A stretch of 64,000 nucleotides of DNA from Candidatus Melainabacteria bacterium. Lineage in GTDB: Bacteria > Cyanobacteriota > Vampirovibrionia > Obscuribacterales > Obscuribacteraceae. This document shows, piece after piece, positions 12,432 through 54,686 of the stretch. Every line of letters begins with the position of its first letter. Position 1 is the stretch's first letter. The stretch spans positions 110,429 through 174,428 of the forward strand of contig PLXC01000185.1 of assembly GCA_003151275.1 (NCBI GenBank), written 5' to 3'. Under the pieces are notes generated by a model, which did not search any database, was not told the origin of the DNA, and saw only the letters and a program-made list of their open reading frames with translations. The position numbers and the translations under genes are program-made.

Positions 12432-14204
12432 ATGTTTGGCGTCATGAAAAATCGTTCCTGTTCGCAGACGGATGAACAGAAGTACGAATACCGCCTTCAT
12501 TATTGTGGCACTTGCAAAACAATGGGAACATTGTTCGGTCAATCGTCGCGTTTTTTACTGAACAACGACGCCGTCTTTCTGGCGGAAATTTTATCGGCAA
12601 TCACGCCTAGCCAAACGGTGCTTTCGCAATGGTCGAGAGAGTATCAATCTTTCAACTGCTTGTCTCTTCCTGCAGAACAAGTGGATATGCCACTCTCGTT
12701 GCAGATTGCTGCGAATGTGACGATGGTTCTGACTGAGTTCAAATTTGCCGATCACATTTTAGATTCAGATCGTAAGCACTGGAAAATCGCACGTAAATTT
12801 TTCTCTAAGAGTTTTGAGCAGGCCGCTAATTCTTTGGAAGCGTGGTCTTTTCCAATGTCAGATTTGTGGCACTGGTTCGAGAAGCAGCAAGGACGCGAGC
12901 ACAACGCCGTCGATTACGCGACACATCACCATCCGCGACAGCTGATCAATTATTGCGCTCAACCAACCGCCGAAATGACAGCGCTGGTTTTCGAAAATGG
13001 TGCTCGTGTTGTAGGTTGTGTTGCTGACTCCACGCTTGCCGAGATGCGAAGACTTGGCAGTGCATTCGGAAAGTTGGTCTACGTTCTTGATGCGATTGAA
13101 GACTTCGCAAGAGATGTTATTAAAAACGAGTTTAATCCCTTTGTGGCTGCTTACGGACTAGAGACGACCGTTCTTCCTGAGCACTGCAAACAGGACGTTT
13201 ACCCTTATGTGCAATCTCTTGCTTCTGCAATCGAACGAGCACTTGAGAATCTTGCTATTGATAGTCAGCTTGCTGAAGAATTTCGTAATCGCCTGCGCCA
13301 AAATATTTCAAACAAGCTTGGTGCTGACTGGCAAAATTATGTTCGCGCCGTTTGTACGGCTCATGCGCACAGTTGCTCAAGCGCCGTCAAACAGTCAGCT
13401 AAAGCCTGTGCCAATGCCCGTTTAACGTTTGTGCAAAAGCGAGATCTAGCATTCGGACTCTCTCAAGAATATTGCGCAGAGACTTCTTCAATTCAGGAGT
13501 TGGTTGCAAAGTTTGGGATTTTTGTAATCGCATTTTTGTTTCCCTATCATGCAAGGCAAGCGAAATCGCGCGATCAAATATTGGGACTGCCCTTCAATTT
13601 GATGGCTTGGGGAGCCCTCATCGATGATGCTATGCGGCTGCTGGCACCGAAGCCGAAATTTGCTTTTGCGATGAGTTCCGGCAGTGGTGGAACGGGCGGA
13701 GGTGATGACAACGATCCGCAACCTCAAAAATGGGGCGGACGACGACGCCGGAAATTTGGTGAGCCCGAGCCATCCGAGCCACTTCCTGACTTGGTTGAAA
13801 CTCCGGACCAAGAGCCAGGAGAAGACCCCAATATTCGTCGTGATCCCGACCCAAAGAAAAACGAGCCTCCCCGATCCAACTACCCGCAAGTCGGACCGGG
13901 TCGAGGATCTGGATATCAATATCAATCGTACGGTGGTGGAAATCCTTGCTGCTCCACTTGTTTAATGAATTGTGGTTGCAACCTGTGCGCCAATTGCGGA
14001 TGCAACATCTGCGAGAACATGCTCTGCATGGGAGATTGTTGCGGAGGCGCAGATTGCTGCGCTGGCGGTGGCGCCGGCGCCGATTGCTGTGGCAGTGCAG
14101 ATTGCTGCGGTGGTGCAGATTGCTGCGGCGGTGGTGCTGATTGCTGCGGGGGAGCCGACTGTGCCGGTTGTGATTGTGGAGGCGCGGATTGTGGCGGCTG
14201 TTGA
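12432..14204 (+). CDS. DUF5685 family protein with cysteine-rich repeat tail
   Basis: Residues 1 to about 380 match DUF5685: MFGVMK opening, YRLHYCGTCKTMG with the paired cysteines, a long helical body and FLFPYHARQAKSRDQ. Then comes a Gly/Pro/acidic linker (residues 400-500) and a tail of about 86 residues holding 27 cysteines, organised as repeats of ADCCGG and related units. I know of no catalytic role for the family. The tail could bind metal ions, form disulfides or be a substrate for modification; this is speculation. AAAGGTG precedes the ATG. No signal peptide, so the tail is probably cytoplasmic. Tail codons are dominated by TGC and TGT. Confidence 0.88.
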   Translation: MFGVMKNRSCSQTDEQKYEYRLHYCGTCKTMGTLFGQSSRFLLNNDAVFLAEILSAITPSQTVLSQWSREYQSFNCLSLPAEQVDMPLSLQIAANVTMVLTEFKFADHILDSDRKHWKIARKFFSKSFEQAANSLEAWSFPMSDLWHWFEKQQGREHNAVDYATHHHPRQLINYCAQPTAEMTALVFENGARVVGCVADSTLAEMRRLGSAFGKLVYVLDAIEDFARDVIKNEFNPFVAAYGLETTVLPEHCKQDVYPYVQSLASAIERALENLAIDSQLAEEFRNRLRQNISNKLGADWQNYVRAVCTAHAHSCSSAVKQSAKACANARLTFVQKRDLAFGLSQEYCAETSSIQELVAKFGIFVIAFLFPYHARQAKSRDQILGLPFNLMAWGALIDDAMRLLAPKPKFAFAMSSGSGGTGGGDDNDPQPQKWGGRRRRKFGEPEPSEPLPDLVETPDQEPGEDPNIRRDPDPKKNEPPRSNYPQVGPGRGSGYQYQSYGGGNPCCSTCLMNCGCNLCANCGCNICENMLCMGDCCGGADCCAGGGAGADCCGSADCCGGADCCGGGADCCGGADCAGCDCGGADCGGC

Positions 14205-37290: not shown

Positions 37291-37908
37291 TTAATTCATG
37301 TTGCAACTTGCCGGTCCACAGAACGTACCATGGCTCACATCAATGGAGAGTCTACTGGGTACATTCTCAGTCAATTGAAAGTTGTTGATAATGTACGAAA
37401 AGCCATTACCGTTATAGTCTTTCACTCGAACAAGGGCAATTCCTGAACTGTTTCCAAAATATGTCGCTATAGCGCTCAAATCCAAACTAAAGTGAACACC
37501 ATCTGTGCTCTTTAAGAAGCAGTTTACGTCACGTTCATAGCACAGGCAATTAGCAAAGGTCACATGTGCATCGATGTCTGTGCAACCACTAATTGTTGCA
37601 TGGGGCGTCTGCACCCATGAAAGCACACCAGGAGTAAACGGTCCAAATGTTCCCAGACCTTGTCCTGGAATGCTGTTGAAGACTTCGAATCCGGCGTGTC
37701 CGGATCCGGCGGACTGGATCAAGAAGCCGGGCGAGCCCGCACCAGCCGTAAGACTCGAGGTGCCGTCTCCACACGCTTCAGGATTCACATAGGGTGAACC
37801 TTTAGCCTTCAAAATACTGTTGCCACCAGCGATCGCACTCGGCATGGACAGAGCAAGCGTAGCCACCGCTACCAATCCAATCGAAAGAATTTTTGATATC
37901 TTGAGCAT
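37291..37908 (-). CDS. Secreted protein, paralogue of the island protein at 50510
   Basis: A 205-residue protein with a signal peptide (VAVATLALSMPSAIA). The mature domain has YVNPEACGDG, GFEVFNSIPG, a cysteine cluster ANCLCYERDVNCF and the ending SIDVSHGTFCGPASC. Similar landmarks occur in the protein at 50510 (GWEVFNSQPA, IDTSHV, WCGDF), so they are likely distant homologues. Seven cysteines suggest disulfides in an extracellular beta-rich domain. Function unknown. It ends in the bidirectional terminator. Confidence 0.78.
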   Translation of the reverse strand: MLKISKILSIGLVAVATLALSMPSAIAGGNSILKAKGSPYVNPEACGDGTSSLTAGAGSPGFLIQSAGSGHAGFEVFNSIPGQGLGTFGPFTPGVLSWVQTPHATISGCTDIDAHVTFANCLCYERDVNCFLKSTDGVHFSLDLSAIATYFGNSSGIALVRVKDYNGNGFSYIINNFQLTENVPSRLSIDVSHGTFCGPASCNMN

Positions 37909-42449: not shown

Positions 42450-43304
42450 GTGAGAGGAAAAATTTATAGCATGAAGAAAGAGAAAAAGAAGGGGTTAAAA
42501 GGCGATGTCGGTCATTTTGGCACTGTCACGAAATATCTATGCGAAGTAGGAAACCTCAGCGATAATCTGCACCAAACATGGAGCAGCATTACGGTCTGGT
42601 TAGAATCCGCTGCACCTATAGCCAGCGTACAATTTGATTTTGTTGACGATCCAGATCCAGACAGTTTTTTCCAAGATGGCATTGTCCATCTCCTTTTTCC
42701 CTTGTCTATGTGTGATCCGATTTTGTCTTTGCTTGAAGGGAAAGATCAACTCACCGTCAGCTTCACCATCAATTCTGACACAACTATCAATGATTTTATG
42801 GTGGCTGGAACCGTGATCGATAGGCAATCTTCCGAGTCTGCCAAATCTTTGAAATTGCCGAAATCTGCGAAATCCGTGAAACCTAAGAAACTCGAAAAGT
42901 TGCCGAAATCTTTAAAAGCTGCGAAGGCTATTAAATCAAAGAAAACACCGAAGGCTTCAAAATCGCCTAAAGCACCAAAGGTTACAAAGTCATCGAAAAC
43001 ACCGAAGGTTTCAAAATCGCCGAAAACGCCGAAGGTTTCAAAATCATTGAAAACACCGAAGGTTGCAAAATCGCCGAAAACACCAAAGGTTTCAAAATCA
43101 CTGAAAACACCGAAGGTTGCAAAAACTCAGAAAACAGCAAAGGTTTCAAAATCACCGAAAACCCCGAAGGTTTCAAAATCACTAAAAGCACCGAAGGTTT
43201 TGAAATCGCCGAAAACACCGAAGGGTTACGAAATCGCCGAAATCTCCAAAGGTGTTGAAATCTCCGAGAGCTCCAAAGGCTTTAAAAACTCCGAAAATTT
43301 CTAA
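42450..43304 (+). CDS. Protein with histone-H1-like Lys/Ser/Pro repeat tail, frame broken near the end
   Basis: The first ~110 residues form a mixed domain (TVTKYLCEVGNLSDNL, SFTINSDTTINDFMVAGT). From about residue 130 the sequence repeats KSPKTPKVSKSLKTPKVAKS-like units that are strongly basic and could bind nucleic acid or polyphosphate. After KTPKG the frame changes to GYEIAEISKGVEIS and ends at 43304, whereas the +1 frame continues the repeats to 43374. GTG at 42450 is preceded by AAGAAGAG; the ATG at 42471 is an alternative. Function unknown. Confidence 0.7.
   Translation: MRGKIYSMKKEKKKGLKGDVGHFGTVTKYLCEVGNLSDNLHQTWSSITVWLESAAPIASVQFDFVDDPDPDSFFQDGIVHLLFPLSMCDPILSLLEGKDQLTVSFTINSDTTINDFMVAGTVIDRQSSESAKSLKLPKSAKSVKPKKLEKLPKSLKAAKAIKSKKTPKASKSPKAPKVTKSSKTPKVSKSPKTPKVSKSLKTPKVAKSPKTPKVSKSLKTPKVAKTQKTAKVSKSPKTPKVSKSLKAPKVLKSPKTPKGYEIAEISKGVEISESSKGFKNSENF
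42930..43250 (+). repeat. Tandem nucleotide repeat coding for Lys/Ser/Pro units
   Basis: Units of about 30 bases built from CCGAAGGTTTCAAAATC-type blocks recur ten or so times. They code for KSPKTPKVSK-like decapeptides. Near-identical copies in tandem suggest recent slippage or unequal exchange, and the array is where the frame breaks. Confidence 0.85.
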
Positions 43305-46317: not shown

Positions 46318-46497
46318 ATGTTTGACCCACTAACTCTTACTTCTAGTAAGCCCAGCTTTCTAAAAGCCAAACAGCATAAGAAATTGGTTCGTGTGGGTCG
46401 AAAGAATGTGCTGCTAGGTAACGAGGACGAAGTAAAAAAGAGGCCCGCTGAGCTAGCATTTTCGAGGGAGGATTTGCCGGATTTTAACTTGCCTTAA
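46318..46497 (+). CDS. Possible small protein, 59 aa
   Basis: The frame from ATG 46318 reads MFDPLTLTSSKPSFLKAKQH to DLPDFNLP. It lies in a short gap and its stop meets the convergent glycosyltransferase stop. No ribosome-binding site is visible, but basic and acidic blocks look protein-like. It is divergent from the thioredoxin-like gene with only a few bases between starts, which is a reason to doubt it. Confidence 0.3.
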   Translation: MFDPLTLTSSKPSFLKAKQHKKLVRVGRKNVLLGNEDEVKKRPAELAFSREDLPDFNLP

Positions 46498-48221
46498 TTC
46501 CCCGAAATCGCTACGTATGGCGCACCCTGGTCAATTTTTTCGACCTTCACCTGCTTGTAACGCTCGTTGAAAGCATTTTTCATCGCCTTCCAATCGGTTT
46601 CTGTGCACAATAAAACAACGTTTTTGTTCTGAGGTAACTGGTTGACTTCATCAGGCGTTATGCTAAGGCACGTCTGCTTTTCGACTCGATATCCTTCGAT
46701 GTTTTGACGAAACTTTTCTTTGTCTCCGTACCAAAAATACATAGACTTTGGATCGTAACAAACGGCAAATAGATCAGCGTTTGGATGGGCCAGCATATAT
46801 TGAGCTGTTAAATGGAAGCTGTTGAGCGTGGCTGCTTTTTGAAAGTCCTCACTATATGAGCGGTTGATCGAGAAGATGCAAATGAGAAGAAATGCAGGCA
46901 CAAGAAAACCGACTAAAGTCGAAGATTGAGCCGCGACTGCGGTGTTTACAAAGGAGAAATTTTTCAACAACAGTTTTGTGATTTTTGCCGCGGCGCCAGC
47001 AACCATAAACAAACCTGTTGTTGCAAAAAATGCTGCAAATGGCCAGATGACCATGAGACGTGTGTAGTTCGGAGCCTTATTTATACAGACAGCATTAACG
47101 AGGTAAATGCATAAAAAAGTGGTGACGGACACGACACTTCCGAAGTCGTTTTTGAATTTACGAATGTGTAAAAGCATACCGAGCCAGATAGCGATTCCTG
47201 TTAGAGGATCAGCAAACCCGTGGGTTAGGTTTTCGTACAAGCAGCCTCTGTCGTAAATATTGTTATTAAATACCGTCAGACCTTGTTTCACGTTTGTGAG
47301 GAATGCAGCCTGGCGATTGGGCTGATGCTCCCATTGTTTCTCGAAATCTAAGCCTTCATTCGACAGAATCGAACACTGTCGAAGATAGCTAATCGTTTCT
47401 GTGGTGACAGTTGGATTCTCCGCGTAATAGCACAGGAGTGGAAGGCATGTGACTATGTAGGCAATTACCGAAGTCGCAATTATATTTCTGCGGCTTTGAA
47501 CTGATTGCCAATTGAATAATGAATATGCGGTGACGGCTAACAACCAGGTGGGGAGAAAAATTCTCGACGGAAAGAACATGTAGAAGGAACATCCGCCGAT
47601 GATCCCGCCTATAATCGATAACTTCATTGATTTGCGTCTAAAGCCTTCAATGAGTAAAAACCAGGCGGGTATCATGAAAAGCAATGCGGAATTGTTGACG
47701 AACGCCATTCGCTGCAGTGCGAAATAACTGTGGTTCATCGAAAAGATTGCGATTCCGCATAATGCAAATAAACGACTCGATTTGAGACTGCGGAAAAGCA
47801 GATAGACACAAGCAATTTCAACACAAGCTAGCGTTGCGCTGACAGTTCTAAAAGTCTGAATATTGATAGACAAACTGAATAGTTTGATTAGCCAACCGTA
47901 CAGATAAAACTCTAGATTCGGATGTTGAAAATACTCGCAGGTGCCAAATACCGGTACCGCGTTATTTATTGCCCAGCGAACACACATAACGTGAGCGCTT
48001 TCGTCACCACTGCATTTATTTGGGTAGTCCATTACCCCGGTTGCGAATATAGGCAGGCAGAATAAGAAAACAAAAAGGGCGATGAGCAAGTCAGCGCCCC
48101 ATTTTGAAACGTAATCATCGTCTGTAAAAAATCGTTTGATTCTTTGAAGATAAGGGTATTGAAGTTTCTGAGAATTTTGCTCAGACAAGGTTTTTGACCA
48201 GCCTTCCGGGAGTGGATGCAA
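46494..48221 (-). CDS. Membrane glycosyltransferase, GT39/GT83-like
   Basis: A 575-residue protein with a cytoplasmic N-terminal part and about ten membrane segments. SGDESAHVMCVRWAINN just after the first segment has the catalytic acidic residue pair typical of dolichyl/polyprenyl-phosphate-dependent transferases (PMT, ArnT). It would add sugars from polyprenyl-phosphate to a target on the outer face of the inner membrane. C-terminal soluble part from about 470 (NADLFAVCYDPKSMYFWYG). The acceptor is unknown. It starts six bases after the hipA stop on the same strand, so may be expressed with it. Confidence 0.85.
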   Translation of the reverse strand: MHPLPEGWSKTLSEQNSQKLQYPYLQRIKRFFTDDDYVSKWGADLLIALFVFLFCLPIFATGVMDYPNKCSGDESAHVMCVRWAINNAVPVFGTCEYFQHPNLEFYLYGWLIKLFSLSINIQTFRTVSATLACVEIACVYLLFRSLKSSRLFALCGIAIFSMNHSYFALQRMAFVNNSALLFMIPAWFLLIEGFRRKSMKLSIIGGIIGGCSFYMFFPSRIFLPTWLLAVTAYSLFNWQSVQSRRNIIATSVIAYIVTCLPLLCYYAENPTVTTETISYLRQCSILSNEGLDFEKQWEHQPNRQAAFLTNVKQGLTVFNNNIYDRGCLYENLTHGFADPLTGIAIWLGMLLHIRKFKNDFGSVVSVTTFLCIYLVNAVCINKAPNYTRLMVIWPFAAFFATTGLFMVAGAAAKITKLLLKNFSFVNTAVAAQSSTLVGFLVPAFLLICIFSINRSYSEDFQKAATLNSFHLTAQYMLAHPNADLFAVCYDPKSMYFWYGDKEKFRQNIEGYRVEKQTCLSITPDEVNQLPQNKNVVLLCTETDWKAMKNAFNERYKQVKVEKIDQGAPYVAISGN

Positions 48222-48227
48222 GTTTGT

Positions 48228-49490
48228 TCACGTCCAGCCAAATTGATTTCTTACACGATCACAAGATCGACCTAATTCTAGAATCATCATATCCGCAACC
48301 CACGTCTGAAATTCACTGTTAGCCAGCTTGTCCCTTTCGCGTTCTGCAACTCCTTCTACCGAGGAGACCTGTTCCTTCAGAAGGTTTCGAAACGCTGGAA
48401 AGCCAAATCCACTGTTCTTGCAAAGTTTTTTCCAATCCTCAACTGTCACGTCGGCTGCGTTAAAACAGCCTCCTATGCTCATCGCTATGTTCTGAATCAG
48501 GTCGTCATATACGTGAATTATCGAAAGTACATCATAAAGTGGTGCAATTTTTGTTGAAGTTCCAGTGGGATGAAGCAACGAAAAGTTCTTGCCGTGCGCA
48601 TCGGCATTGCCGAGGAGATAATTGAGTATCAAAAACTTTGCGAAAGTTGTTCTGTCTAGCGCTGGTCTATCGGACTGTTTGAGAAGCTCGAAGCATTCCT
48701 TGAAACCCGGACCGTTTTCAGCTTCATATTTATGCGCCGCGACAATCCCGATCGCTTGGCAGAAATCTTCTTGATGGATCCGACGAATAAATGTTCCATC
48801 GATAATTTCACGGTCGTATCTCTCAACTAGAACATAAGCTTGGTCTTCGGCGCGTCTGATTTCAGCCTTAGCTGTTGGTAAGCCAAGACCGCTTGCAATC
48901 GAGAGACACAAGAATTCGTTTTGAACTGTCGCTTCATGTTGTGCCATAGCCGGCTTAAGAATATGTGTTGTAGGTACATCTTTTGCTGGTAAATAGATTC
49001 GTCCATCTATCAAGCACACGCCAGCTTTATTTTGGAAGCCTGCTAGTGAGAGCCGAATCCCTTGCACTCCAGCGAGAAGAGGCGTTCTGGGTAGGTCGCG
49101 AATCAGTTCAGCAAGTCGCTTTTCGGCCAACTCTTCCCCTTCCATTTTTTGTAAGTCATTAGATGGCAGTGGTTCGGTTGGGTCGTGCAAAGATATAGCA
49201 CCTGCGCATTCCTTGCCAATTGCTTTTAAAAGACTAAATGTGTTGTTAGCATTGGCATTCAACCTGCGAGCTATTAACTCTCGTGCCTGCTGGTTCTCGG
49301 GCAAAAGACCGCCAAAAAACGCTTCGCATACAACATCTCCATATGTGGTGCCGTCAAGAGGCATACTTAGGGAGATTGGTGTCTTCGCATCTTTCTCGTA
49401 AGTAAAGGAAAGCCTGCTTGTCTCGTCCCTGTCGAGATGCCCAACGGGTTGATTTTGAAGGCAAACGATCAACCTATCTGCCGACGACAT
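48228..49490 (-). CDS. hipA: HipA-family toxin kinase
   Basis: A 420-residue kinase of the HipA group. In E. coli HipA phosphorylates glutamyl-tRNA synthetase and halts growth. The N-terminal HipA_N region has GHLDRDETSRLSFTYE and SLSMPLDG; the kinase domain shows LSLAGFQNKAGV, the nucleotide pocket FILNYLLGNADAHGKNF with catalytic Asp and Asn, and APLYDVLSI. Length is usual. It overlaps hipB (stop at 49474) by 17 bases. A GTG at 49499 is an alternative start. Neutralised by HipB and repressed with it. Confidence 0.94.
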   Translation of the reverse strand: MSSADRLIVCLQNQPVGHLDRDETSRLSFTYEKDAKTPISLSMPLDGTTYGDVVCEAFFGGLLPENQQARELIARRLNANANNTFSLLKAIGKECAGAISLHDPTEPLPSNDLQKMEGEELAEKRLAELIRDLPRTPLLAGVQGIRLSLAGFQNKAGVCLIDGRIYLPAKDVPTTHILKPAMAQHEATVQNEFLCLSIASGLGLPTAKAEIRRAEDQAYVLVERYDREIIDGTFIRRIHQEDFCQAIGIVAAHKYEAENGPGFKECFELLKQSDRPALDRTTFAKFLILNYLLGNADAHGKNFSLLHPTGTSTKIAPLYDVLSIIHVYDDLIQNIAMSIGGCFNAADVTVEDWKKLCKNSGFGFPAFRNLLKEQVSSVEGVAERERDKLANSEFQTWVADMMILELGRSCDRVRNQFGWT

Positions 49491-49728
49491 GTTCACCACT
49501 TCCGTCTTGTCCTACGTCCAGTGGTGCCAAAGCGTTGATTTTTATTCCGAGCATTGCAGCAACAGTAAGCGCTTTCTCAATTTCACAAGTTGGCTTGCCG
49601 TTCTCTAGGTCAACGATAAATCTTGTGCCTGTACCTGTTGCACCAGCGAGTTCCGGCTGCGTCATGTGCTGGCTTTTCCGAACCTTGCGAATAAGGTTTC
49701 CTAAGTCGGAGGCTGATTTTATGTGCAT
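49474..49728 (-). CDS. hipB: HipB-family antitoxin, HTH repressor
   Basis: An 84-residue helix-turn-helix protein (residues 5-68, LGNLIRKVRKSQHMTQPELA with SRxxI-like TRFIVDLENGKP). It binds HipA and represses the operon through upstream palindromes. The ATG at 49728 is preferred because GAGGGG lies six bases before it; the frame is open 13 codons further but that overlaps operator 1. The coding order antitoxin-toxin and the 17-base overlap are characteristic. Confidence 0.94.
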   Translation of the reverse strand: MHIKSASDLGNLIRKVRKSQHMTQPELAGATGTGTRFIVDLENGKPTCEIEKALTVAAMLGIKINALAPLDVGQDGSGEHVVGR

Positions 49729-49743
49729 AAGAGCCCCTCTTTT

Positions 49744-49858
49744 ATTCCCGTACGGTAAATTTAGCACAAAAAAGGCGATTTTGACATTTTATTTACCATA
49801 CGGTAAATGTTAGACAAAATTGGTCCTCGCTACCCTGAAATGTACCGTACGGTACATT
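49744..49858. promoter_or_regulatory. Three palindromic HipB operators
   Basis: Operator 1 (49744-49759) is TTCCCGTACGGTAA with one mismatch; operator 2 (49791-49808) is ATTTACCATACGGTAAAT, imperfect in the centre; operator 3 (49839-49858) is a perfect 20-base palindrome with core GTACCGTACGGTAC. They share the TACCGTACGGTA core and are 47 or 48 bases apart centre to centre. They overlap the hipB promoter region, consistent with cooperative autorepression as in E. coli hipBA. Confidence 0.85.
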
Positions 49859-50059
49859 TTTCAGCTTGGTGCTAGTTCTATTCGCGTCTCCGCAAAAATA
49901 CGTAGTGTGGGGTCAAATTTTTGAACTTGTTTGAAACTGAGTGAATCCTTTTTGAGGTGCCACCATCTATGATGCACATAGTTGTCTCATTTCCAATTTG
50001 ATCTTCACCCGTTGAGAGTGAGACGCTGTACGCGGGCGGGATTTAGAGACTAAGAATTG

Positions 50060-50080
50060 AATATGAGGCAGACGAGGGGA
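50060..50080 (-). repeat. Left attachment-site copy (tRNA-His 3' end)
   Basis: This 21-base stretch includes GGCAGACGAGGGGA, identical to the T-arm and acceptor strand of the tRNA-His gene at the other end. The only difference is A at 50066 in place of G. The homology stops abruptly at both ends, so it is a detached tRNA fragment and not another tRNA. Confidence 0.75.
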
Positions 50081-50206
50081 GCGGTAAAATGCTGTTCTTG
50101 GATAATATATATCGTGCCTCAGCACCTTTGAATGCTCAACCGTCGCTGTTTTGCGATCTATCAATCAATGTGGACTGCATTTTCAATTTTTCCATTCTAA
50201 CCAAGT

Positions 50207-50404
50207 TCAAAAACTACTGTGACGCAGATAATATTTCGACGGTCGGTCATATGCGAAATGTGACCAATTAGGCAGCTTAGAGTCGTCATCGAATTCAAAT
50301 ATCGGTTCGAGAATTTCATTTGATTCGTAGTCTGCGAAAGTCTCCACATTCACCACTTGCTTCAGTTGGCCTAGTAACCACGAGTGTGGGTAATTTGCCC
50401 TCAT
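50207..50404 (-). CDS. Possible small protein, 65 aa, inside the element
   Basis: The frame from an ATG at 50404 has protein-like composition with aromatic and acidic residues (FADYESNEILEPIFEFDDD and PNWSHFAYDRP). GAGGGGG lies 11 bases upstream, a little far. No homologue recognised. It may be a cargo gene, or chance. The plus-strand frames here look worse. Confidence 0.35.
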   Translation of the reverse strand: MRANYPHSWLLGQLKQVVNVETFADYESNEILEPIFEFDDDSKLPNWSHFAYDRPSKYYLRHSSF

Positions 50405-50509
50405 CTGAGTGCTGCCCCCTCGTTCCCATTGGCGATTATAGTCGAAGGGAAAGTTGTCTTCCTCTCGGACCCATCCGCTCCACCCTCCGCTCCAACCTTC
50501 TTGAGAGGG

Positions 50510-51145
50510 TTAGAAATCTCCGCACCAGTCAAAGACACCAGTGCCGTCGTGGTTGTCGACGTGGGAAGTGTCAATACCGATTGCAATCCCGTTAACCGCA
50601 AAATGGCTGACCATATATCTAGTGATTGGAGTTGCGTTGTTGTAGATCCAGAAGATGACATTTACTGGCGAACCGAGGCTGGCACTACTTCCTGGAATTA
50701 TAGAAACTTGTCCGTTACCCACTGAGGACAAGACGTTGGCAAATGCTCCGTTTGAATATACTGTAGTAACGATCATAAAATTGTTGGTGGCAGGCAGCCC
50801 ACTTAAGTTGAAAGTGTAAGTACCTGTAGGTGCCACATTCGTGGCTGATGGAGAAATATTGCCGGGATTAATCGCAGGCTGGCTGTTGAACACCTCCCAA
50901 CCAGAATAACTAGCGGCGGGATTGTTACCCGACTGCTGGTTGACACCATTTACTTGCAGCACCAACTGTCCATTTTGTGACAAATAATTGATACTGTTGT
51001 TTGTGCCACCGTAACCAGTGCATAGACCGCCGATCACAAACGGGCCAAGTCGCCGATTATGACTCAACGCTTGTGCACTCTGACATGAGCCAACGTGCAA
51101 GGCTATCATCAACACCGCTATCACAACTTGGCTCGCGTTACGCAT
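50510..51145 (-). CDS. Secreted protein carried by the element
   Basis: A 211-residue protein with a signal peptide (VVIAVLMIALHVGSC, cleavage near AQA). The mature domain has GPFVIGGLCTGYGG, SGWEVFNSQPA, GTYTFNLSGLPATNNF and the end IDTSHVDNHDG with FDWCG. Landmarks correspond to those of the secreted protein at 37291, suggesting distant paralogy. Predicted beta-rich. ATG at 51145 is behind GAGAGG; function unknown. It is transcribed toward the left attachment site. Confidence 0.78.
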   Translation of the reverse strand: MRNASQVVIAVLMIALHVGSCQSAQALSHNRRLGPFVIGGLCTGYGGTNNSINYLSQNGQLVLQVNGVNQQSGNNPAASYSGWEVFNSQPAINPGNISPSATNVAPTGTYTFNLSGLPATNNFMIVTTVYSNGAFANVLSSVGNGQVSIIPGSSASLGSPVNVIFWIYNNATPITRYMVSHFAVNGIAIGIDTSHVDNHDGTGVFDWCGDF

Positions 51146-51430
51146 ATTCACCTCTCAGAGTTCAGGTCATTATAAAGCCCCACTAAATATTAATCCAGCC
51201 ATGTGACAAACATTCGCGGGCAATCGATCCAACTGAGCTGGCAATTAGCGGGGTCAAATTTGACAGTGCCAATGCCGCATATGGACTCGTCGCAAGGGCG
51301 CCACAATGGCAACCGCATTTGACCAATTCAAAATGACCCGCCAGCTCTACAACCTGGTATCCGATGCACTCCGGCCTAATTCGGCGCCTTCACCTTAGGC
51401 TCACGACTCCACAAGCGCAACTTCCTGCAA

Positions 51431-52381
51431 TTGTTGACCAACTTGGCTCGAAATATGAGGTGCAGTTGGGATGTAATCCGGTCTTTTCCCGGATTTACAG
51501 TATCTTCCATAGCAGCTTACAATTCGATTTTGAAAAAGTATTTGCTTCCCGAATTTGCTTCTATACCCATAAAGGAAGTTAGTGATTCAGAACTACGAAA
51601 GTTTCAAGTCCGCATTTCCAAGACTGTGTCACCGTCTCGTGTGAACACTGTGATGCAATTACTCCGTAGCATCATGGGACAAGAATACAAAGAAGGAAAC
51701 ATTCGACGCGATCCATCTTTAGCAGTAAGACGAATGCAGGAACCAAAAGTTCATATCGATCCCCTTTCCGAAGACGAGTTAGAAATCGCGATGGAAATGA
51801 TCGATGATCACTACAAACCGTTGTTTTTGACGCTTGCCTATACCGGTGCTCGACCCAATGAGTTATGTGCCCTACGTTGGAGTGATATTGATTGGAACGG
51901 CGAATACATCAGCATTACAAAGGGAAGGGTTAGAGGTAAGGAAGGGTTGCCGAAAACGAAATCGGGTGAACGACAAATACCCATGATGCCTCGTGTTGCG
52001 GAAGCACTGAAAGCCCTAAAAGAAAGAAGCATCGATTCGATTCATGGGTATGTGTTCACAACTCCAAAAGGAAACTCCATCGAAAAACATTTGGACAGAA
52101 TTTGGTCACGAGCACTCAAACGTGGTGGACTGAGTCATCGGCCTTCATATCAACTGCGACACACCTTTGCCACTATGTGCATAATTCACCAAATGCCTTT
52201 GCTGTATATCGCTAAGGTTTTGGGACACTCAACGATTGATTCTTTGGTAAGGAATTATGCTGGCTGGATTAACAATGAGACCAAGGAATATGACGCCAAG
52301 CTGAAACAGGCATTTTCCAAAAATCAGGCTGGAGAATCCAGTCACCTGCGTCAAAAGTCGGGAGTTTTTCCGGGAGTTTGA
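51431..52381 (+). CDS. int: Tyrosine recombinase / integrase of the element
   Basis: A 316-residue site-specific recombinase. Residues 27-100 are the SAM-like core-binding domain (SSIAAYNSILKKYLLPEFA). The catalytic domain contains TGARPNELCALRW (Arg), YQLRHTFATM (second Arg, with Tyr in the usual His position), LGHSTIDSLVRNYAGW (His and nucleophile Tyr). It lacks the arm-binding N-terminal domain of lambda-type integrases. A TTG at 51431 is the assumed start and no clear ribosome-binding site is visible; the true N-terminus may differ. It ends 44 bases before the tRNA repeat. Confidence 0.9.
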   Translation: MLTNLARNMRCSWDVIRSFPGFTVSSIAAYNSILKKYLLPEFASIPIKEVSDSELRKFQVRISKTVSPSRVNTVMQLLRSIMGQEYKEGNIRRDPSLAVRRMQEPKVHIDPLSEDELEIAMEMIDDHYKPLFLTLAYTGARPNELCALRWSDIDWNGEYISITKGRVRGKEGLPKTKSGERQIPMMPRVAEALKALKERSIDSIHGYVFTTPKGNSIEKHLDRIWSRALKRGGLSHRPSYQLRHTFATMCIIHQMPLLYIAKVLGHSTIDSLVRNYAGWINNETKEYDAKLKQAFSKNQAGESSHLRQKSGVFPGV

Positions 52382-52430
52382 TTTCGCTCCCTTCTGAAAC
52401 CCTTGTGTCGCAATCGTTCAGAGAAATATG

Positions 52431-52505
52431 GGGCAGACGAGGGGACTTGAACCCCCGAATACCGATACCACAAACCGGTGCCTTAACCACTTGGCGACGC
52501 CTGCC
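52431..52505 (-). tRNA. tRNA-His (GTG)
   Basis: Folds as a cloverleaf: acceptor stem with G at position -1 opposite C73, D arm GCCAAGTGGTTAAGGC, anticodon stem CCGGT with loop TTGTGGT giving anticodon GTG, and T arm GGGGGTTCAAGTCCCC. The extra 5' G and C73 are the tRNA-His identity elements. CCA is not encoded (CAT follows). It is the integration site of the element on its left. Confidence 0.95.
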
Positions 52506-52649: not shown

Positions 52650-54686
52650 TTAGAGACCGACCAGCTTAAATACTGGCGGTAACAGCCGGGCTAGGGCTCC
52701 GCCGATAACGAAGGCGCACACCCAGGAGCCGAACCAGATTGTGAAAGCTGCTTTCGGTCCCCGCTCTTTGCACATGACACCGACCGTTGCGATGCAAGGA
52801 ACAAACAATGTGATTACAATCATCGCTGTAACTGCTTGCACCGCAGTTAGTGGCACCTCGGTCAATCCGAATGAAGCGAAATCTCGTCTGACAATACCCA
52901 GGATAAAAGTGGTGGCAATGCGAGGGTCGTCGGGTAGATTGAGCAGAGTCACGGTGATAGGCTGCAAGACCTTGATGAAGGCGTCAAGGAGCCCTGTCAT
53001 TTGGGCAATGGTGACGAGGAATCCTGCTATGAAGAATGCTGGAGTTGCGTCCTGTAGAAAGTTCCAAGATTTGGTCCAGGTCTTTTTCAAGACATTGTCG
53101 GCTCGGGGCATGCGCATAGGCGGCAGGTCTAGAATCAGTCCGCCGGATTTTCCAGGCAGAACCATATTGAGAAGCAATCCAGTTAATGCCAGGATGCCAC
53201 CTACGACAATGCCGTATACAGCCCAAGCATAACCGCCACCTACGCGAGCCAGTGTCCCGGAAACAACTCCTAGTTGTGCCGAACACGGGATTGCAATACC
53301 AAGCAAAGCCGTAGCAATCATTTTTTCGCGCTTCGTCGAAAGTAAACGCGTGGTGATTGTTGCCATAGTGACGCATCCTAAGCCGAGGATGAGAGGAATG
53401 ATTGCGCGTCCATTCAACCCGATCATGTTCATCATTCGATCGACGAGCACCGCTAGTCTGGGCAGATATCCCGAGTCTTCGAGGATGGACAGACCAAGAT
53501 AAAATCCGAGCACCAACGGAAACAACAATCCAAGCAAGTACGTTACCGTCAACGTAACCAGTCCATATTCTCCAACCAAAATATTTCCGATCACACTTAG
53601 TACGGATTTACTTGGCCAAAAATTGAACTTTAAGTCCTGAACTTGCGTCTTCTTTATTGTGGAGTCTAATTGAGCTGCTTCATTTGGATTAGCCAACGTT
53701 CCGTTGGGAAAATCGAATGTTGTTCCGTTCGCCGTGATGGTTGATGGAAAAACACTCGCTGCAAGACGACGTACCACCGGCTCATAGTAGACCTTCATGA
53801 TTTTCTTTTCTGTTATGTCAACGAGATTGCCGGCAATGAGGACGCCGAGCAGTTGATAAAAAATCAGATAGCAAACTGCAAAGGAGATAATTGATCCGTA
53901 AATTGGGTGGAGAAGAAATCGACCCAACTTAATCGAGAAGTTAACAGACTTTTGCTCTTGCACAACACACTGTTGAACATACTCGTTCGCGAGTAACCGT
54001 CGCGTACCGTAAATGGCTGCGCGATCAGTCAGTGGTTGAACACCGCATTTGGTGGCGGAGACTTCGTCGCCCTCTGCGATCAGTAATGCGTATGGTTGAT
54101 CAATGCCTTTATCCAACAGTGGTTGAATTGCAAGTAAAACATCTTCGCTGATTTTGCCAACGCAGGCGTTGTCGATGTTTTGACGAATTTCGTCAATGCC
54201 TTCTTTGCGAACAGCGACGCACTTGAGCACGGGCACGCCGAGAAGGCTGGAAAGAAGGGAGGTGTCAATCTCCATCCCTCGGCGTAATGCCTCGTCCCAT
54301 TGATTTATGACGAGCAAAAGAGGTTTGCCCATTTCAATCAACTGGAGGGAAAGAAAAAGATCCCGATCAAGGCTCAATGCTGAGACAACATTCACGATGA
54401 TATCGGCTTCGAGGATCATCAGACGCGCTGCTCGCTCTTCGTCGTTGAAGCTAGAAACACCGTATACGCCGGGCGTGTCGGCGATGTCAGAGTCGCCTAA
54501 CTTGCCGCGCGAAACATCAATTGTTGTGCCTGGATAGTTGGAAACATCGGCGCTCATGCCAGTGAGAGCGTTGAAAATTACAGATTTGCCAACATTAGGA
54601 TTTCCAGCCAGCGCAATTTTCTTTGTGCTGGACGCCGGGAAGCTGTATCGGCTTTGTTGAGTCATTTCCTTGGAAGAAACGCTCAT
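52650..54686 (-). CDS. feoB: Ferrous iron transporter B
   Basis: Imports Fe(II) across the inner membrane. The N-terminal G domain has GNPNVGKS (residues 28-35), the switch Thr in NYPGTT, ADTPGVYG and NQWD; then a helical spacer and about eight membrane segments with two Gate motifs (LGLSILEDSGYLPRLAVLVD and VPCIATVGVMCKERG). Length 678 is slightly short of E. coli FeoB. No feoA or feoC is adjacent, so FeoA must be elsewhere or absent. It starts from a gene-free 250-base gap. Confidence 0.97.
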   Translation of the reverse strand: MSVSSKEMTQQSRYSFPASSTKKIALAGNPNVGKSVIFNALTGMSADVSNYPGTTIDVSRGKLGDSDIADTPGVYGVSSFNDEERAARLMILEADIIVNVVSALSLDRDLFLSLQLIEMGKPLLLVINQWDEALRRGMEIDTSLLSSLLGVPVLKCVAVRKEGIDEIRQNIDNACVGKISEDVLLAIQPLLDKGIDQPYALLIAEGDEVSATKCGVQPLTDRAAIYGTRRLLANEYVQQCVVQEQKSVNFSIKLGRFLLHPIYGSIISFAVCYLIFYQLLGVLIAGNLVDITEKKIMKVYYEPVVRRLAASVFPSTITANGTTFDFPNGTLANPNEAAQLDSTIKKTQVQDLKFNFWPSKSVLSVIGNILVGEYGLVTLTVTYLLGLLFPLVLGFYLGLSILEDSGYLPRLAVLVDRMMNMIGLNGRAIIPLILGLGCVTMATITTRLLSTKREKMIATALLGIAIPCSAQLGVVSGTLARVGGGYAWAVYGIVVGGILALTGLLLNMVLPGKSGGLILDLPPMRMPRADNVLKKTWTKSWNFLQDATPAFFIAGFLVTIAQMTGLLDAFIKVLQPITVTLLNLPDDPRIATTFILGIVRRDFASFGLTEVPLTAVQAVTAMIVITLFVPCIATVGVMCKERGPKAAFTIWFGSWVCAFVIGGALARLLPPVFKLVGL

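What the first reader, a model, noticed from the sequence alone, without database searches (positions are those of the whole stretch)
50060..52445. Minimal 2.4-kb integrative element in tRNA-His carrying a secreted protein
A 21-base direct repeat (one mismatch) of the tRNA-His 3' end bounds a stretch with one tyrosine recombinase reading toward the tRNA and one secreted cargo protein whose distant relative is on the chromosome at 37291. There is no replication, transfer or excisionase gene. Such a compact integrase-plus-secreted-protein unit is unusual and could be a satellite or cassette-like element.
Basis: partly seen in the sequence, partly recalled or inferred. Interest (0 to 1): 0.75.

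Follow-up and report, generated by a model that had tools for sequence, protein, structure and literature searches.

The report
Decayed mobile island in tRNA-His
A 2.4-kb stretch beside a histidine tRNA gene of an uncultured Melainabacteria-type bacterium is bounded by genuine integration scars, but its integrase gene has lost its front end, so it looks like the leftover of a larger mobile element rather than a new minimal one.

Summary
The att-bounded stretch is real. A 21-nt repeat of the tRNA-His 3' end (50060-50080 and 52425-52445, one mismatch) occurs twice in the window. Sister genome palsa_1080 (G001) carries the same 21 nt, perfect, at both ends of a different 9.3-kb element in the same tRNA-His, with orthologous flanks: one attachment site, two occupants. 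'Minimal satellite or cassette' is not supported. The integrase is 5'-truncated: homology starts near 51494, while 107 of the 120 listed protein relatives have 49-131 residues before that point, as do 19 of 19 genome relatives, and no trace of that part was found in the interval. Two tRNA-His relatives with both ends seen span 9.3 and 11.4 kb and carry primase-type genes. The secreted protein belongs to a rare, predicted all-beta family; its one relative with readable context has no integrase nearby. Best reading: deletion remnant of a tRNA-His integrative element, CIME-like except for the integrase fragment. The kept catalytic core is well conserved, so recent truncation, or function without the N-terminus, is not excluded. 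Mobility is untested.

The parts
52429..52504 (-). tRNA-His (GTG), the integration target
   Evidence: ARAGORN; Rfam RF00005 55 bits; tRNA-His also 0.12-4.8 kb downstream of the FeoB-like gene in 16 of 19 related loci scanned
52425..52445 (.). attR: 21-nt repeat, 17 nt of it the tRNA 3' end
   Evidence: identical 21 nt at the same tRNA-His of sister genome G001
50060..50080 (.). attL: 21-nt repeat, one mismatch to attR
   Evidence: the sister genome has a perfect second copy (L027:11764-11784) before the same chromosomal genes
51431..52381 (+). 5'-truncated tyrosine recombinase (integrase) gene; homologous part starts near 51494
   Evidence: PF00589 1.2e-21, PF14659 only from profile position 19; 59% to G016 and G050 integrases, both beside tRNA-His; N-terminal part absent; no evident ribosome-binding site before either candidate start (by eye)
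51152..51493 (.). sequence of unknown origin where the integrase 5' end would be
   Evidence: no match at E 0.05 to ORFs of 80 aa or more of four related elements or contigs; no nucleotide match of this part in 53 genomes, not all candidates scored
50510..51151 (-). secreted, predicted all-beta protein gene (213 aa; likely ATG start at 51145, 211 aa as in P0121)
48228..49767 (-). hipBA-like toxin-antitoxin pair in the flank, outside the att-bounded stretch
   Evidence: PF07804 1e-46, PF13657, HTH_3; hipA 3' end shared with G001 at 96%
52650..54686 (-). FeoB-like gene, conserved chromosomal neighbour of tRNA-His
   Evidence: the name FeoB is recalled from the sequence type, no family search was run on it

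Best explanation
A tyrosine-integrase element once inserted into the 3' end of tRNA-His, leaving the att duplication that keeps the tRNA whole. It then lost most of its body by internal deletion, including the 5' end of its own integrase gene and any replication genes. What remains is attL, a secreted-protein gene of a rare family, a piece of unknown origin, the integrase core-binding and catalytic part, and attR. SHOWN: att repeats, target, alternative occupant in the sister genome, truncation, larger relatives. INFERRED: that the ancestor was of the 9-11-kb type, that the secreted gene was cargo rather than a later insertion, and that the fragment cannot move by itself. It could in principle be excised by a complete tRNA-His integrase acting in trans.
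For: Two att copies only, matching the tRNA end. Sister genome: same 21 nt at both ends of a 9.3-kb element, FeoB side 92%, hipA end and next gene 96 and 92% identical. Truncation: 107 of the best 120 listed protein relatives (of 212 hits) have 49-131 residues before the point where the window's homology starts; 19 of 19 genome relatives have that part. The 4 best of 19 genome relatives are beside tRNA-His; the other 15 have no tRNA-His in the fetched 1.5-kb flanks; the window groups with two of the four at 100/98 support. Relatives carry HTH_17, AEP-TOTE, DUF927/Toprim, DUF3987 and DnaG-zinc-ribbon/Toprim proteins.
Against: The kept integrase core is well conserved: it deviates at 1 of 46 columns invariant in the others, and has no stop, so the truncation is recent or tolerated. 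Of the 120 listed relatives 13 are under 330 aa (one is the window's own P0001); of the other 12, ten have at most 11 residues before the window's homology start, among them P0069 on a 994,663-bp contig and P0103 on a 264,037-bp one, which are unlikely to be contig edges. P0002, P0047 and P0069 even start within 9-11 residues of the same place. This fits repeated decay, or a recurring short form. No empty site was found: only one close genome is held. The flank just outside attL (50059 to 48600) does not align with G001, so the outer junction is not matched base for base.
Confidence: 0.8

Rival explanations
1. A functional minimal integrative element: an integrase without its N-terminal (arm-binding) domain, like simple tyrosine recombinases, still moves a single secreted cargo gene, alone or with host factors.
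For: Core-binding and catalytic parts are conserved; P0001, the same protein, is reported from 3 contigs; ten other short relatives lack the same part, three of them starting near the same place; recombinases without an arm-binding domain do occur on MGEs, though as a minority (27 phages against 410, 12 ICEs against 211; PMC8138268 passages).
Against: 19 of 19 genome relatives, including the two sister tRNA-His integrases, have the N-terminal part; the truncation enters the core-binding domain (PF14659 from position 19); no second unit of this kind seen in 53 genomes; the window integrase found no relative in viral contigs and the family alignment one weak locus; no plausible ribosome-binding site (by eye).
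Confidence: 0.07
2. A larger integrative island (including hipBA and more) whose true left end lies beyond 50060; the 50060 repeat is an internal scar of serial insertions.
For: hipBA can be mobile (general knowledge); the sister genome shows another toxin-antitoxin-like pair (Gp49/HTH_37) in the same flank.
Against: No further att copy in the 64-kb window or in the 19.9 kb of G001 read as L027; the hipA 3' end and the genes beyond it are shared by both genomes at 90-96%, as expected of chromosome.
Confidence: 0.07
3. Chance repeat or assembly artefact.
For: One mismatch between repeats; the source of the window is unknown and may be a metagenome assembly.
Against: Chance expectation about 2e-6; the same 21 nt bounds another element in the same tRNA of another genome; the integrase fragment is reported from 3 contigs.
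Confidence: 0.02

Closest known systems
CIME (cis-mobilizable element)
   Same: Retains attL and attR at a target gene, no transfer gene, arises by decay (definition seen in passages of PMC5704250).
   Different: Still holds a truncated integrase gene; the CIME definition starts from ICEs or IMEs, whereas the relatives here show primase-type and no conjugation genes among the ORFs scanned.
tRNA-His elements of related genomes (G001 9.3 kb, G014 11.4 kb; G016 and G050, second end not seen)
   Same: Same tRNA, same integrase family, integrase next to and reading toward the tRNA; in G001 the same 21-nt att.
   Different: Full-length integrase plus primase/helicase-type genes; about 4-5 times larger where both ends are seen.
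Phage satellites / tycheposons
   Same: tRNA target and tyrosine recombinase; PMC10872708 describes tycheposons as 4-200 kbp with tRNA and recombinase (passages).
   Different: No recognised replication or packaging gene here; smaller than that range; integrase incomplete.

Membership tests
tRNA-integrated element of the tyrosine-integrase type | direct repeat of the tRNA 3' end at the far boundary | tested here: met
tRNA-integrated element of the tyrosine-integrase type | complete cognate integrase | tested here: not met
   N-terminal part missing
tRNA-integrated element of the tyrosine-integrase type | empty site in a related genome | tested here: inconclusive
   the one close genome is occupied by another element; the distant loci share the FeoB side only
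CIME | attL and attR retained | tested here: met
CIME | integration and transfer genes lost | tested here: inconclusive
   no transfer family found, integrase reduced to a fragment but not gone
CIME | can be excised or moved with a helper integrase | not testable with these tools
   needs cells or reads
Phage satellite (P4/PICI/PLE kind) | recognisable replication or packaging genes in the element | tested here: not met
   two main ORFs scanned, nine smaller ones: none
Carbohydrate-binding module (secreted protein) | significant fold match to a CBM | tested here: inconclusive

The most novel reading that the evidence does not exclude
The truncated integrase, without its N-terminal domain, is a working simple recombinase, so that attL, one secreted gene, integrase core and attR form a self-moving or trans-moved mini-cassette that spreads single secreted proteins at tRNA-His; the other short relatives of this integrase would then be a recurring short form, not debris.
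Probability: 0.06. Interest if true: 0.6.

Novelty: new member of a known kind. Interest (0 to 1): 0.2.

Why it matters
It documents a FeoB/tRNA-His integration hotspot in Melainabacteria-type genomes with unrelated occupants, and warns that very small att-bounded units found by reading sequence may be decay products. If the mini-unit did move, it would show how little a tRNA-targeting element needs.

Tried and rejected
Viral contigs: the window integrase gave no relative; a 14-row integrase alignment gave one locus at 37% over residues 152-342, not followed up. Plasmid and phage DNA: no match to 50060-52445. Origin of 50081-51493 by nucleotide search in 53 genomes: one 51-nt match, inside the G037 secreted gene; in many genomes only 7 of up to 22 candidates were scored. 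Secreted protein: besides G037 a weak G013 match with stops inside (E 0.0012) was not counted. Relatives of the 37291 protein in 53 genomes: none (the tool says an empty answer shows nothing). The gene next to hipA (46494-48221) was found at E 1e-40 only in G001, so no other genome could show the empty site. HipA genes at the hotspot: HipA is common (39 of 53 genomes), so not pursued. A 12-nt repeat GGGGTCAAATTT at 49909 and 51250: 2 of 100 shuffles have as many matches; left as probably chance. Tree: tRNA-His as a label is not more clustered than shuffles (107 of 500 as low); a tRNA-Ser integrase is sister to the group of window, G050 and G016, and the other two tRNA-His integrases lie elsewhere, so only that three-row group is firm. 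Literature: a search for Obscuribacterales with integrase found one paper, seen as listing only, on resistance in manured soil; no other search for a prior report of this element was made.

Full report
What is there. No whole genome is held for the window. Its FeoB-like protein is 98% identical to that of MAG palsa_1080 (Candidatus Melainabacteria); the other 19 loci of that scan match at 47-69% and are titled Obscuribacterales, Obscuribacter, Melainabacteria, Cyanobacteriota or only 'bacterium', with one weak Bacillales hit. So the window is Melainabacteria-type, probably Obscuribacterales. tRNA-His(GTG) stands at 52429-52504 minus. A 21-nt repeat of its 3' end lies at 50060-50080, one mismatch, with no other copy. 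Between are an integrase ORF (51431-52381 +) and a secreted-type ORF (50510-51151 -). Nine further ORFs of 50-113 aa gave no Pfam family.

The att site is real. tRNA-His lies 0.12-4.8 kb downstream of the FeoB-like gene in 16 of 19 related loci scanned (L020, the weak Bacillales hit, was left out). In the closest genome, G001, the flanks match the window: 92% on the FeoB side and 90-96% over five blocks from the hipA 3' end outward. Between them lies a different element, with the 21-nt sequence perfect at the tRNA and again 9338 bp further on. The 1.2-1.5 kb between attL and the shared hipA end does not align between the two genomes. G014 has a 20-nt repeat with one mismatch 11,404 bp apart at its tRNA-His; for G016 and G050 no second copy was found in the 8.5 and 6.9 kb available. 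Of the 16 loci with tRNA-His, 2 had an integrase of this family beside it.

The integrase is a fragment. In tblastn of 59 relatives against 50000-52450, the strong alignment begins at 51461-51503 in the rows that I could see, 51578 in one short relative (the output was cut), and the earlier residues of the complete relatives found no convincing counterpart. Among the 120 listed relatives (of 212 hits), 107 are at least 330 aa long and all of these have 49-131 residues (median 87) before the window's homology start; 13 are shorter, one being the window's own, and of the other 12 ten have 0-11 residues there, P0007 46 and P0120 86. Some short ones sit on long contigs (P0069, 994,663 bp; P0103, 264,037 bp), so truncation in this family is not unique to the window. 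All 19 genome relatives have the N-terminal stretch, and a search of 382 genomes of the class gave 19 matches in 17 genomes, all starting at model position 1-8 of 377. Pfam sees the core-binding domain in the window only from position 19, against 1-2 in three of four complete tRNA-His integrases and 17 in the fourth. Pfam does not name the missing part; that it is the arm-binding domain is inferred from position and from PMC8138268 and PMC4880445 (passages), which describe this domain as N-terminal and as directing recombination. The remaining core is not visibly decayed: 1 deviation in 46 invariant columns, against 0-7 in 17 other rows.

Relatives of the element. At E up to 1e-60, 19 integrases occur in 17 of 53 genomes of the order. 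In the fetched 1.5-kb flanks 4 have tRNA-His, 1 tRNA-Ser, 2 tRNA-Thr, 3 tmRNA, 9 none. The four tRNA-His ones are the four best matches (59, 59, 50, 47%). In the tree the window joins G050 and G016 (100/98), with the tRNA-Ser integrase next and the other two tRNA-His integrases elsewhere. Pfam scans covered 20 ORFs: 16 from the four elements or contigs, 2 from the G014 flank and 2 from the G001 flank. They show HTH_17, AEP-TOTE primase, DUF927/Toprim, DUF3987 and DnaG-zinc-ribbon/Toprim proteins, i.e. replication-type modules; no conjugation or capsid family appeared, and several ORFs had no family.

The secreted protein. It found only itself in the first protein search, one clear relative in 53 genomes (G037, 39%), and eight proteins including itself by profile. 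The G037 gene stands beside TPR, exonuclease III-like and MsrA-like genes (by eye), with no integrase among the ORFs listed and no tRNA in the 3.6-kb locus. The model (pLDDT 74.7) is a signal helix and a beta sandwich; many of the fold matches are carbohydrate-binding modules, but all Z are below 8, so the CBM link is a lead only. The relation to the 37291 protein is open.

Verdict. A real tRNA-His att-bounded island, best read as the deletion remnant of a larger element. The compactness is more likely decay than design, unless an excision test shows otherwise.

Noticed in passing
window 48228-49767; L027:12100-12830 and 12949-13326; L028:6382-7915: In the sister genome the flanking hipA is reduced to its 3' end and a Gp49/HTH_37 toxin-antitoxin-like pair stands before it, while a second, complete hipBA copy (85%) lies on another contig between other genes.
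   Followed up: partly
L005:8877-10004: Another genome has a hipA homologue (44%) between the FeoB-like gene and tRNA-His; HipA is common in the order (39 of 53 genomes), so this may be chance.
   Followed up: partly
P0001 and P0121: The integrase fragment and the secreted protein are reported from different numbers of contigs (3, longest 43,434; 6, longest 539,524), so some strains may hold one without the other; contexts could not be read.
   Followed up: no
P0002, P0047, P0069: Three short integrase relatives begin within 9-11 residues of the same place, at an M..ERANYK-like start; complete relatives often have a methionine there, so this may be an internal start chosen by gene callers.
   Followed up: partly
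window 42450-43304: A lysine-rich ORF made of many copies of a short KTPKVSKS-like repeat.
   Followed up: no
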